Source of the DNA: Acidocella aquatica
Lineage (GTDB): Bacteria; Pseudomonadota; Alphaproteobacteria; Acetobacterales; Acetobacteraceae
DNA length: 64,000 nt
Direction: 5' to 3'
Assembly: GCF_030160635.1 (NCBI RefSeq)
Contig: NZ_BSOS01000007.1
Span: 62,001-126,000, forward strand
Shown here: one piece after another, positions 32,121 through 54,752 of the stretch
Layout: each line of letters opens with the position of its first letter
Numbering within the stretch: position 1 is the first letter of the stretch
Position numbers and translations under genes: made by a program
Notes under the pieces: model-generated
What the model saw: the letters and a program-made list of their open reading frames with translations, nothing else
Told to the model about the DNA's origin: nothing
The model's database searches: none

Positions 32121-33038
32121 ATGCATATTCGCAATCCAATGGAGTGGATAGCCGGGCAGATCAGCTCAACCAACGTCATCGGCAGCGCGACTCCGCAGGA
32201 GTATTGGCCGGTCAGCAGCGGCGGCGCGATGCCGGTGGTGCGCAAAATCACCGTTGAGGACGTGCGCGACGCAATCCGGCGCGGGCTGGATGATTTCGCC
32301 GCGGCGCGCACCGATGTCATATTCCTGTGCATGATCTATCCGCTCATCGGGGTGTTGATCTCGATGGCCGAGGCCCATGGCCGCCTGTTGCCGCTGCTGT
32401 TCCCCACGGCGGCGGGCTTTGCGCTGGTCGGGCCGCTGGCGGCGGTCGGGCTGTATGAAATGAGCCGCCAGCGTGAACTCACCGGCAAAATAAGCTGGCT
32501 TGACACCTTCAAGGTCATCCGCTCGCCATCGATTGGCGCCATCACCGGGCTCGGCCTGCTGCTGATCGGCCTGTATTTCGCCTGGCTGGCGGTGGCGCAG
32601 GTGATCTACGATTTTACCATGGGGCCGATGCCGCCCGCCTCGGCGCGGCTGTTCATCGAAGGTATGTTCACCACTTCAGCCGGGTGGACGATGATGATCG
32701 CCGGGCTGGCCGCCGGAACCATGTTCGGGGCCGGGGTGGTGGCGATCAGCGTGGTCTCCTTCCCCCTGATGCTGGACCGCCCGGTGGGCTTTTCCACCGC
32801 CATCGCCACCTCCGTGCAGGTTTTGTTGCGCAACCCGGGGCCGCTCACCGTGTGGAGCCTCATCGTCGCCGCGAGCCTGTTTGTGGGCGCCCTGCCCTTC
32901 TTTATCGGGCTGATCGTGGTGCTGCCGGTTCTGGGCCACGCGACCTGGCATTTATACCGCAAGGTTGTCGTGCCGCCCGCGGGGATGAATGCAATCAATT
33001 CAGGGCGCGATCAGGAGACGCAGACATCCGGCGCATAA
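32121..33038 (+). CDS. DUF2189 multi-pass membrane protein
   Basis: 305 residues from the ATG at 32121, which follows AGAAGGA; the frame is open further upstream but lacks a comparable site. After a soluble N-terminal part (VRKITVEDVRDAIRRGLDDFAAARTDV) there are about six hydrophobic helices, including FLCMIYPLIGVLISMAEA and PFFIGLIVVLPVLGHATWHLYRKVV, the layout of DUF2189. Function is unknown; the family is often found near respiratory genes in alphaproteobacteria. An FNR-type site follows 16 nt after its stop. Confidence 0.8.
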   Translation: MHIRNPMEWIAGQISSTNVIGSATPQEYWPVSSGGAMPVVRKITVEDVRDAIRRGLDDFAAARTDVIFLCMIYPLIGVLISMAEAHGRLLPLLFPTAAGFALVGPLAAVGLYEMSRQRELTGKISWLDTFKVIRSPSIGAITGLGLLLIGLYFAWLAVAQVIYDFTMGPMPPASARLFIEGMFTTSAGWTMMIAGLAAGTMFGAGVVAISVVSFPLMLDRPVGFSTAIATSVQVLLRNPGPLTVWSLIVAASLFVGALPFFIGLIVVLPVLGHATWHLYRKVVVPPAGMNAINSGRDQETQTSGA

Positions 33039-33053
33039 AAAATCCGCCCGTTT

Positions 33054-33067
33054 TTGATTTAGGTCAA
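33054..33067 (+). promoter_or_regulatory. FNR/CRP-family site upstream of the candidate sRNA
   Basis: TTGATTTAGGTCAA matches the FNR consensus TTGAT-N4-ATCAA at 9 of 10 fixed positions. A -10-like TATTCT lies at 33092-33097. A start near 33104 would put the site centre at about -43, close to the class II activator position of -41.5. Confidence 0.6.
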
Positions 33068-33103
33068 CGACGAGGGATCAAAACAGGTGTTTATTCTGTT
33101 TAT

Positions 33104-33164
33104 CCGAAAGCGGATACACTCCCCACACTGGCCCTGCCGCAGAAATGCGCGCAGGGCTTTTTTT
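33104..33164 (+). ncRNA. Candidate FNR-controlled small RNA
   Basis: The gap 33039-33307 has no credible gene, but it holds an ordered set of signals: an FNR-type site, a -10-like hexamer, a short stem TCCG/CGGA, a single-stranded C/A-rich stretch (TACACTCCCCACACT), and a strong intrinsic terminator (33131-33137 pairing with 33151-33157, inner CGC/GCG, then seven T). The predicted transcript is about 60 nt. It could instead be only the terminator of the DUF2189 gene, but that would leave the FNR site without a target. Confidence 0.5.
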
Positions 33165-33307: not shown

Positions 33308-34672
33308 CTACACCGCCACGGCATGGCGCGGGGATGACGTTTGCTGCGCCAGATACTGGTCGAACAATGCCGCGACATTGCGCACAAACGGCCGGCCGGC
33401 CTCGGTCACCTCAATGCGCGTGCCGTCCCAGTTCACCAGCCCGTCGGCCTTGAAGCCCGCCAGCGCCCGCGCATCGGCCAGCAGCGGTGCCGGGTCGGCG
33501 CCAAAGGCTCCGGCCTGCGCCAGCAAATCCACCTCCAGCTCACACATGATGCTCTCGATCACCGCGCGGCGCAGCCTGTCATCGGGGTTGAGGGCGGCGC
33601 CACGGCTGGTTGCCAGCCTGTCCTCGTTGATGGCGGCGCTATAGCCGGGCACGCCGGAGGCATTCTGCACATAGCCCTGCGGCAGGCTGCCAATCGCGCT
33701 CGCCCCCAGGCCGATGAGGGCCGGTGCTGCGTCGGTGGTGTAACCCTGGAAGCTGCGGTGCAGCTGCCTGCCCAGCGCCGCCTGCGCCATGGCATCGCCG
33801 GGGCGGGCGAAATGGTCCAGCCCGACCGGAATATAGCCCCCTTCGCGCTCCAACACCCGGCGCACCATTTTCGCCTGCGCGAAGCGCGCCCGCGCGCCCG
33901 GCAGCGAGGCTTCGGGGATCAGCGACTGGTGCTTCTTCATCCATGGCACATGCGCGTAGCCGAACACGGCCACCCGGTCGGCGCGCAGCGCCAGCGCCTG
34001 CCGCGCGGTCCGCTCCAGCGATTCCTCGCTCTGGTGCGGCAGGCCATAGATCAGGTCCAGGTTGAGCGAGGTTATGCCGATCCCGCGCAATGCCTGCGCG
34101 CAGGCCGCGGTTTCCTCAAAGCTCTGCTGGCGGCCGATGGCGTCCTGCACCGCCTGGTCAAAATCCTGCACGCCCAGGCTGGCGCGGTTGATGCCCATTT
34201 GCGCCAGCGCCGCCAGGCGGTCCGGCGACAGCGATGTGGGGTCGATCTCGATGGCGATCTCGGCATCGGGGAGCAGCTCGAAATGGCCGCGCACGCTCTC
34301 CATGATATCGGTAAGGCAATCGGGCGGCAGCACCGTGGGCGTGCCCCCGCCCCAATGCACATGCGAGACCTGCAAGCGCCGCCCCACGGTCCGCGCAACC
34401 AGCGCGATCTCACGCATCAGCGTCCTGGCGTAAATGCGCTTGGGGCGCTCCAGATGCACGACCGAGGTGTTGCAGCCGCAATACAAACACAGCCGGTCGC
34501 AGAACGGCACATGCAGATAGAGCGAAACCGGCCCCGCCTCCGGCAGGTTCGCCAGCCACCCGGCATAAGTCTGCGCTCCTACCTCGGGGGTAAAATGCGG
34601 CGCGGTCGGGTAGCTCGTATAGCGCGGCACGCGGCCATCGTAGCGGGCAATCAGGTCTGCATCTGTCATCAT
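33308..34672 (-). CDS. hemN: Oxygen-independent coproporphyrinogen III oxidase
   Basis: Radical SAM enzyme that makes protoporphyrinogen IX without oxygen. The 454-residue product has the cluster CxxxCxxC (Cys58, Cys62, Cys65) followed by Cys67, the HemN-specific extra Cys, then HVHWGGGTPTVL and the late GLGASAIGSLPQGYVQN. The start RVPRYTSYPTAPHF is typical of HemN rather than the heme chaperone HemW. An FNR-type site lies 34 nt upstream, consistent with low-oxygen induction. Confidence 0.95.
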   Translation of the reverse strand: MMTDADLIARYDGRVPRYTSYPTAPHFTPEVGAQTYAGWLANLPEAGPVSLYLHVPFCDRLCLYCGCNTSVVHLERPKRIYARTLMREIALVARTVGRRLQVSHVHWGGGTPTVLPPDCLTDIMESVRGHFELLPDAEIAIEIDPTSLSPDRLAALAQMGINRASLGVQDFDQAVQDAIGRQQSFEETAACAQALRGIGITSLNLDLIYGLPHQSEESLERTARQALALRADRVAVFGYAHVPWMKKHQSLIPEASLPGARARFAQAKMVRRVLEREGGYIPVGLDHFARPGDAMAQAALGRQLHRSFQGYTTDAAPALIGLGASAIGSLPQGYVQNASGVPGYSAAINEDRLATSRGAALNPDDRLRRAVIESIMCELEVDLLAQAGAFGADPAPLLADARALAGFKADGLVNWDGTRIEVTEAGRPFVRNVAALFDQYLAQQTSSPRHAVAV

Positions 34673-34706: not shown

Positions 34707-34720
34707 TTGATTCAGGTCAA
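34707..34720 (-). promoter_or_regulatory. FNR-type site upstream of hemN
   Basis: On the minus strand the site reads TTGACCTGAATCAA, 9 of 10 fixed positions of TTGAT-N4-ATCAA. It is centred about 41 nt before the hemN ATG, in the 61-bp gap after cysK. hemN is a classic FNR target in other bacteria. Confidence 0.7.
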
Positions 34721-54738: not shown

Positions 54739-54752
54739 TTGATATTAATCAA
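54739..54752 (-). promoter_or_regulatory. Perfect FNR-type site upstream of ompW
   Basis: TTGATATTAATCAA is a perfect palindrome and matches TTGAT-N4-ATCAA at all 10 fixed positions. It is centred about 68 nt before the ompW ATG, leaving room for a transcript start 25-30 nt ahead of the gene. Confidence 0.75.

What the first reader, a model, noticed from the sequence alone, without database searches (positions are those of the whole stretch)
33054..33164. Candidate anaerobically induced small RNA with its own FNR-type promoter and terminator
A gene-free gap contains, in order and at workable spacings, a 9/10 FNR site (33054-33067), a -10-like TATTCT (33092-33097), a short stem-loop TCCG-AAAG-CGGA, an unpaired C/A-rich stretch, and a strong hairpin with seven T (33131-33164). 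This mirrors the logic of the enterobacterial FnrS sRNA without evident sequence similarity. Two other FNR-type sites in the window (hemN, ompW) suggest an active FNR-family regulator.
Basis: partly seen in the sequence, partly recalled or inferred. Interest (0 to 1): 0.7.

Follow-up and report, generated by a model that had tools for sequence, protein, structure and literature searches.

The report
Low-oxygen small RNA in Acidocella
A short regulatory RNA gene, apparently switched on by a low-oxygen sensor protein, is conserved across many species of the acid-loving bacterium Acidocella and looks like a rewired copy of a small RNA family known from related bacteria.

Summary
The window comes from an Acidocella genome. 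The FNR-type site (33054-33067), -10-like box, stem-loop, C-rich single strand and terminator are all there, and 25 of 38 Acidocella genomes have the unit. In these 25 loci TTGAN6TCAA lies 41.5 bp (19) or 40.5 bp (6) upstream of the RNA's first conserved base, the class II FNR position reported for E. coli and gonococcal fnrS. The spacer between site and RNA is mostly unconserved; both helices show compensatory changes. The unit is convergent to hemN at 23 of 25 loci while the upstream gene varies, so it is a stand-alone gene.

It scores far below Rfam's cut-off, so it is a probable diverged sibling, not a formal member. Likely action: anti-Shine-Dalgarno pairing that represses mRNAs at low oxygen. 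I found no convincing conserved target.

The parts
33054..33067 (+). FNR-type site TTGATTTAGGTCAA, centre 33060.5, 41.5 bp upstream of 33102
   Evidence: TTGAN6TCAA at 41.5 or 40.5 bp in 25 of 25 loci
33092..33097 (+). -10-like hexamer TATTCT
   Evidence: partly conserved position in the footprint of 16 loci
33102..33102 (+). predicted transcription start (33102, possibly 33102-33104)
   Evidence: Inference: class II spacing; block-wise conservation starts at this base. No transcript data
33102..33115 (+). 5' stem-loop ATCCG-AAAG-CGGAT
   Evidence: in 25 sequences all scored cells of this helix pair, one pair with changes on both sides
33116..33129 (+). unpaired C-rich core ACACTCCCCACACT, proposed seed
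   Evidence: alignment with alpha-R8 core
33130..33164 (+). Rho-independent terminator: hairpin 33130-33158 and T run to 33164
   Evidence: 8 of 11 pairs with changes on both sides in relatives
32121..33038 (+). upstream neighbour, DUF2189 membrane protein (start uncertain: open frame from 31980)
   Evidence: direct upstream neighbour in 4 genomes only
33308..34672 (-). hemN (radical SAM, HemN_C), convergent neighbour at 23 of 25 loci
34707..34720 (-). FNR-type site TTGATTCAGGTCAA upstream of hemN
   Evidence: comparable sites upstream of hemN in L113, L114, L116

Best explanation
The segment is a stand-alone gene for a small RNA of about 63 nt (33102-33164), with its own class II FNR promoter and Rho-independent terminator. 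When oxygen is low, the FnrL-type regulator binds the site at -41.5 and recruits RNA polymerase (inferred from site, spacing and gene content; not measured). The RNA is most likely a diverged sibling of the alphaproteobacterial alpha-R8 (suhB/MmgR/SisA) RNAs. It keeps their layout (weak 5' hairpin, unpaired C-rich core, terminator) and most of the core, but the seed has changed from UUUCCUCCCU to ACACUCCCC. By analogy with SisA it probably pairs with Shine-Dalgarno regions, with Hfq, and represses a set of mRNAs unwanted at low oxygen (inferred; targets unknown).
For: Conservation: 20 loci (the window's own included) from a DNA search of 61 genomes, four more from a covariance-model search of 38 Acidocella genomes and one beside hemN, in all 25 of 38 genomes. 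For L007-L020 (14 of 14) the match that fetched them did not cover the FNR site, so its presence there is independent. Fixed 41.5/40.5 spacing in 25 of 25. Footprint: over 16 loci TTGAT and TCAA are invariant, the spacer mostly is not, and strong conservation resumes at the predicted +1. Covariation: 9 of 15 pairs with changes on both sides, score 0.282 against 0.152 in shuffles, 0 of 500 as high (alignment fitted to the model). Varying upstream genes. Class II -41.5 in known fnrS genes. Alpha-R8 link: full-length sub-threshold RF00519 matches at the RNA in the window and two relatives (15.4, 21.9, 20.1 bits); the model built only from FNR RNAs hit a true RF00519 RNA in another alphaproteobacterium (34.3 bits); A. 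aromatica has a true RF00519 RNA (46.8 bits) and a near-threshold one (39.2 bits) with a closely similar core in the same place before the terminator.
Against: No transcript, start site or oxygen response is shown. The alpha-R8 matches stay far below the Rfam cut-off of 41 bits, and their E-values (0.38, 1.2, 3.5) are not significant alone. In the 136-bp scan another sRNA family scored higher (SdsR, 16.2 bits) and an unrelated one had a lower E-value (0.11). RF00519 was not listed for L048, L049, L050, L019, nor for L001, the window's own copy, in the larger scan. In 1.6 Mb of A. aromatica the FNR-RNA model ranks the true alpha-R8 RNA only third, E 5.7. The canonical 10-mer UUUCCUCCCU is not kept, and the window's own core matches the A. 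aromatica alpha-R8 core at only 11 of 14 with a deletion (counted by hand). A short anti-Shine-Dalgarno core could arise twice. Seed pairing at translation starts was not better than for permuted seeds (82 of 944 ORFs at -12 kcal/mol or lower; coding control 60; permuted mean 68, max 159). The nuoF candidate failed. Hfq was not looked for. 13 of 38 Acidocella genomes lack the unit, six of them with a strong FnrL relative.
Confidence: 0.72

Rival explanations
1. It is an FNR-controlled small RNA that arose independently; the likeness to alpha-R8 is convergence on an anti-Shine-Dalgarno core next to a terminator.
For: Rfam scores below threshold; weak reciprocal score for the A. aromatica alpha-R8 copy; the 10-mer is only 6 of 10 identical (by hand); the FNR-RNA model found nothing at 26 hemN loci of other Acetobacteraceae.
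Against: Identity continues beyond the anti-SD part (AAACUUGG) in the same register before the terminator: 13 of 14 bases in A. aminolytica and A. facilis. 20 permuted cores gave on average 0.3 (at most 2) matches with at most one mismatch in 1.6 Mb, both strands.
Confidence: 0.22
2. The segment is only the 3' end and terminator of the upstream DUF2189 transcript, perhaps giving a 3' UTR-derived RNA; the FNR site is incidental.
For: In the window the terminator lies about 90-125 bp behind DUF2189 on the same strand, so read-through would end there.
Against: DUF2189 is the direct neighbour in only 4 genomes (G000, G010, G015, G022); elsewhere other genes lie upstream while site, spacing and RNA stay; the spacer is mostly unconserved but the site is invariant.
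Confidence: 0.03
3. The RNA acts mainly in cis, antisense to the 3' end of a long hemN transcript, since both are FNR-controlled and convergent.
For: Convergent to hemN at 23 of the 25 counted loci; hemN has its own FNR-type site.
Against: In several loci (L072, L073, L081, L085) the RNA lies about 570-850 bp from hemN; the near-invariant part is the 5' loop and unpaired core, not the whole stretch; L050 has no hemN within 1.5 kb, nor its genome at E 1e-80.
Confidence: 0.06
4. The RNA encodes a tiny protein or works as a protein-binding decoy rather than a pairing RNA.
For: None direct; targets remain unknown.
Against: No ATG or GTG in the conserved 5' part (a TTG occurs in ACTTGG of many relatives); conservation sits in an unpaired C-rich core and in compensated stems.
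Confidence: 0.05

Closest known systems
Alpha-R8 / suhB / MmgR RNAs (Rfam RF00519; MmgR in Sinorhizobium, SisA-D in Caulobacter)
   Same: Alphaproteobacterial; about the same size; weak 5' hairpin, unpaired CUCCC core directly before a Rho-independent terminator; several siblings with unrelated promoters in Caulobacter (PMC12559287: section 7 read, other passages seen)
   Different: Below the Rfam cut-off; seed changed from UUUCCUCCCU to ACACUCCCC; FNR promoter. The two A. aromatica copies (L376, L374) show no TTGAN6TCAA in the roughly 100 nt upstream that I printed, judged by eye. MmgR is described as induced by nitrogen depletion (passages of PMC9049629)
FnrS of enterobacteria and the FnrS of Neisseria gonorrhoeae
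   Same: Own promoter with FNR site at -41.5, presumed low-oxygen induction; terminator in the gonococcal one (passages of PMC3032703; E. coli targets from passages of PMC8139620)
   Different: No FnrS match in Rfam scans; hosts of other classes of bacteria; about 63 nt against 108 nt in gonococcus
PcrZ of Rhodobacter sphaeroides
   Same: Alphaproteobacterial sRNA induced at low oxygen, dependent on FnrL (passages of PMC8139620)
   Different: PrrA site, FnrL control possibly indirect; photosynthesis targets; no sequence comparison made here

Membership tests
Alpha-R8 / suhB (RF00519) | Score at or above Rfam gathering cut-off (41 bits) | tested here: not met
   15.4 bits window, 21.9 L009, 20.1 L018; not listed for L048, L049, L050, L019, L001
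Alpha-R8 / suhB (RF00519) | Unpaired 10-mer UUUCCUCCCU | tested here: not met
   ACACUCCCC or ACUUUCCC at this place; L048 and L049 have ACACUUUCCUCC
Alpha-R8 / suhB (RF00519) | Weak hairpin 5' of the core | tested here: met
Alpha-R8 / suhB (RF00519) | Rho-independent terminator directly behind the core | tested here: met
Alpha-R8 / suhB (RF00519) | Hfq association and anti-SD pairing | not testable with these tools
   Needs experiment; seed statistics not better than permuted seeds; hfq gene not searched
Class II FNR-dependent promoter | FNR site centred near -41.5 from +1 | tested here: met
   41.5 (19) or 40.5 (6) of 25 relative to the first conserved base; +1 itself is predicted
Class II FNR-dependent promoter | O2-sensing FNR-type regulator in the genome | tested here: met
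   G000:C90 protein 60% identical to an FnrL-type protein; the query scored 154.1 bits to NCBIfam FnrL, below that model's cut-off of 300; iron-sulfur cluster not testable
Class II FNR-dependent promoter | FNR-dependent expression at low oxygen | not testable with these tools
   No expression data
FnrS (enterobacterial) | Sequence or covariance-model similarity | tested here: not met
   No FnrS family match at gathering or at E up to 10 in the 136-bp region

The most novel reading that the evidence does not exclude
In the ancestor of Acidocella an alpha-R8 RNA was copied to the hemN locus and put under a class II FNR promoter, and its seed then changed. The result is a low-oxygen small RNA with a target set distinct from its siblings: FnrS logic evolved a further time, in alphaproteobacteria, from an unrelated RNA family.
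Probability: 0.5. Interest if true: 0.65.

Novelty: new variant of a known kind. Interest (0 to 1): 0.52.

Why it matters
FNR-activated small RNAs are described from enterobacteria and Neisseria; of the alphaproteobacterial cases I came across, PcrZ may be only indirectly controlled by FnrL. A direct, genus-wide FNR small RNA in an acidophile would give a clean test of post-transcriptional control of the oxygen shift there. If it is an alpha-R8 sibling, it also shows how a widespread RNA family is recruited to a new signal by promoter and seed change, which can be tested by swapping promoters and seeds among siblings.

Tried and rejected
Long complementary targets: TGGGGAGTGT occurs at 16 places outside the RNA in 9 Acidocella genomes, against 17 for the reversed control, and nowhere else in the window's genome. 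TGGGGAGTGTATCC with up to 2 mismatches: 80 places outside the RNA in 11 genomes, control 46. I inspected all 16 of the first and 19 of the 80: no orthologous pair at a convincing gene start; one homologous pair (L132/L134) looks like coding sequence by eye.

Seed-plus-start search GGGGAGT-N2-11-ATG in 8 genomes: the listing was cut. I took the listed hits of G034, G061 and G000 (one of G000 left out), two more of G024, and the loci returned with the search. 62 of 110 loci gave an ORF of 60 aa or more. nuoF was rejected: only 6 of 30 genomes have GGGGAGT there, two of them without the RNA, and it overlaps the end of the preceding coding frame. A secretin-like gene (5 loci) was rejected because the site looks like the end of the upstream coding frame (inference). 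hmgA stays a lead only: 3 of the 4 genomes that have the gene carry GGGGAGT before its start. benB likewise, 2 genomes. A response regulator and an isochorismatase-like gene, two genomes each, were not followed.

Pairing on 944 ORFs of about half of A. aromatica: not better than permuted seeds, although 37 starts against 18 coding controls reach -14 kcal/mol.

Distribution outside the genus (large searches used stricter filters that lose weak matches): 13 of 200 genomes of the order had hits, eight of them Acidocella; the other five lack the FNR site. Of 9 of 385 in the class, one is the window's own; the other eight lack the site, and one of these (L065) proved to be a true suhB RNA. hemN was found in 121 of 200 family genomes, but only 30 loci were returned; at 26 of other genera, and at L113, L114, L116, the model found nothing. 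A script scan of 28 loci plus these three found only G007 (an Acidocella) and missed G061, a known positive among them, because its T run is interrupted, so it is not sensitive. Paenibacillus hit L086: no FNR site, reads as chance. Five model hits within the genus (L051, L052, L055, L057, L058) lack the site and were not counted. Exact core pattern: none in viral contigs; no plasmid match.

Mistake mended: the DUF2189 query was translated one base out of frame; one search repeats it in frame with the same loci found (L044 was not repeated; its contig is covered by L079).

Papers: searches listed no report of this RNA or of an FNR-controlled alpha-R8 RNA. For most papers I saw only listings and abstract starts; passages of PMC8139620, PMC3032703, PMC9049629; one section and passages of PMC12559287.

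Full report
What is there. The gap between a DUF2189 gene (ends 33038) and hemN (ends 33308) holds, on the + strand, TTGATTTAGGTCAA (33054-33067), TATTCT (33092-33097), a stem-loop ATCCG-AAAG-CGGAT (33102-33115), an unpaired ACACTCCCCACACT (33116-33129) and a hairpin with seven T (33130-33164). The RNA from 33102 folds into these two hairpins, z = -3.96. Rfam has no match at its thresholds.

Origin. The window is G000:C7:62001-126000 of a 4.03-Mb genome.

Conservation. A DNA search of 61 genomes gave 20 loci with the core, including the window's own. All 20 carry TTGAN6TCAA, its centre 41.5 bp (16) or 40.5 bp (4) from the A of ATCC. A covariance model from 10 of them (R1), which does not contain the promoter, found 28 places in 38 Acidocella genomes at E up to 0.01. 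23 places have the site, five weak ones do not. With one more locus beside hemN in G027, 25 of 38 genomes have site plus RNA: 41.5 in 19, 40.5 in 6. L048 and L049 were not caught by the pattern; their spacing is read. G061, G005, G001, G004 and G027 were accepted partly because they have the site, so the least circular figure is L007-L020: 14 of 14, where the fetching match did not cover the site.

Footprint. In an ungapped stack of 16 loci with the 41.5 spacing, the columns of TTGAT and TCAA are invariant, as are a G and an A column just behind; the next 17 or so columns carry little information; the -10 region is intermediate; strong conservation resumes exactly at the predicted +1. This is what a class II activator site and a functional RNA would leave. 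Over 25 sequences 9 of 15 pairs show changes on both sides, eight in the terminator and one in the 5' stem. That alignment was fitted to the model; an independent MAFFT alignment of 10 gave 5 such pairs, none in the 5' stem.

Surroundings. The RNA is convergent to hemN at 23 of the 25 counted loci. L019 and L050 show no hemN in the stretch held. The upstream neighbour is DUF2189 in 4 genomes (G000, G010, G015, G022; in G032 it lies about 2.2 kb away). Elsewhere it is a GAF/sigma-54 activator (family search on L078), a CBS/BON-domain protein (L081), or, in the third group, an FnrL-type regulator followed by ompW (G006 by family search; the others by ORF likeness). So the RNA has its own transcription unit. 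Of the 13 Acidocella genomes without the unit, 10 also lack hemN at E 1e-80. 24 of the 25 with the unit have a strong FnrL relative (E below 1e-80) against 6 of 13 without. Incomplete draft genomes weaken such counts.

The alpha-R8 link. A permissive Rfam scan of the 136-bp region gave six sub-threshold matches; suhB/MmgR (RF00519) was one, 15.4 bits, full-length, E 0.38; SdsR scored 16.2 bits and an unrelated element had E 0.11. RF00519 recurred at the same place in L009 (21.9 bits) and L018 (20.1), but was not listed for L048, L049, L050, L019, nor for L001, the window's own copy, in that larger scan. The shared stretch is CUCCC(U/C)AGACUU next to the terminator. R1 had hit G560 at 34.3 bits (L065), which I first dismissed for want of an FNR site; Rfam confirms it as a true suhB RNA, 59.9 bits. 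In 1.6 Mb of A. aromatica I found a true suhB RNA (L376:17415-17488, 46.8 bits) and a second just under threshold (L374:13184-13263, 39.2 bits, E 9.5e-5). Their cores read CTCCCTAAACTTGG and CTCCCTGAACTTGG. The FNR RNA of A. aminolytica and A. facilis reads CTCCCCAAACTTGG (13 of 14), that of A. aromatica CTCCCCAGACTTGG (12 of 14), that of the window CTCCCCACACTGG (11 of 14 with a deletion) (counted by hand). Against this, R1 ranks the A. aromatica copy only third in 1.6 Mb at E 5.7. PMC12559287 (section 7 read, other passages seen) describes alpha-R8 RNAs as a weak hairpin, an unpaired UUUCCUCCCU and a terminator, with Caulobacter siblings SisA-D having unrelated promoters and acting with Hfq through an anti-Shine-Dalgarno motif. 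The FNR RNA meets the layout but not the exact 10-mer or the Rfam score. I call it a probable diverged sibling, not a member.

Mechanism. Shown by sequence: promoter layout, predicted RNA structure, conservation, a suitable regulator. Inferred: start near 33102, activation by FnrL at low oxygen (as for fnrS in E. coli and gonococcus, both with the site at -41.5; passages of PMC3032703), Hfq binding, pairing of ACUCCCC with G-rich ribosome binding sites, repression. Target searches gave no convincing conserved target. hmgA and benB, both oxygen-dependent dioxygenases, are leads only.

Novelty. No Rfam family covers it at threshold. The paper searches listed in Tried and rejected turned up no description. 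It combines two known kinds: FNR-activated small RNA and alpha-R8-like RNA. I rate it a new variant of a known kind. My odds: about 0.93 that it is an FNR-controlled small RNA gene, about 0.65 that it is an alpha-R8 sibling, about 0.6 that it represses by anti-SD pairing.

Noticed in passing
L374:13184-13263 and L376:17415-17488: A. aromatica has two alpha-R8-type RNAs (one just under the Rfam cut-off) besides the FNR one, so an Acidocella sibling set like SisA-D is likely; L376's copy lies between an ispF-like ORF (by eye) and the tmRNA.
   Followed up: partly
L396:8288: An exact copy of the 14-base alpha-R8 core CTCCCTAAACTTGG without a terminator behind it.
   Followed up: no
L396:12917-13097: A manganese riboswitch (yybP-ykoY, 71.8 bits) in A. 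aromatica.
   Followed up: no
window 34707-34720 and 54739-54752: Two further TTGAN6TCAA sites, upstream of hemN and at the start of an OmpW-family ORF, consistent with an FNR regulon.
   Followed up: partly
L255:1215-2833: In the third sequence group an FnrL-type regulator gene and ompW lie directly upstream of the small RNA.
   Followed up: partly
L290-L292 (start of hmgA): Homogentisate dioxygenase starts are preceded by GGGGAGT in 3 of 4 Acidocella genomes that have the gene; possible target.
   Followed up: partly
L384:995-3013: Best single predicted duplex (-21.8 kcal/mol) in the A. aromatica stretches is at the start of a GAF/sigma-54 activator gene, the same kind of gene that lies upstream of the RNA in L078.
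   Followed up: no
G015 contigs C125 and C165 (L044, L002): One draft genome has the small RNA on two short contigs, a real duplication or a mixed assembly.
   Followed up: no
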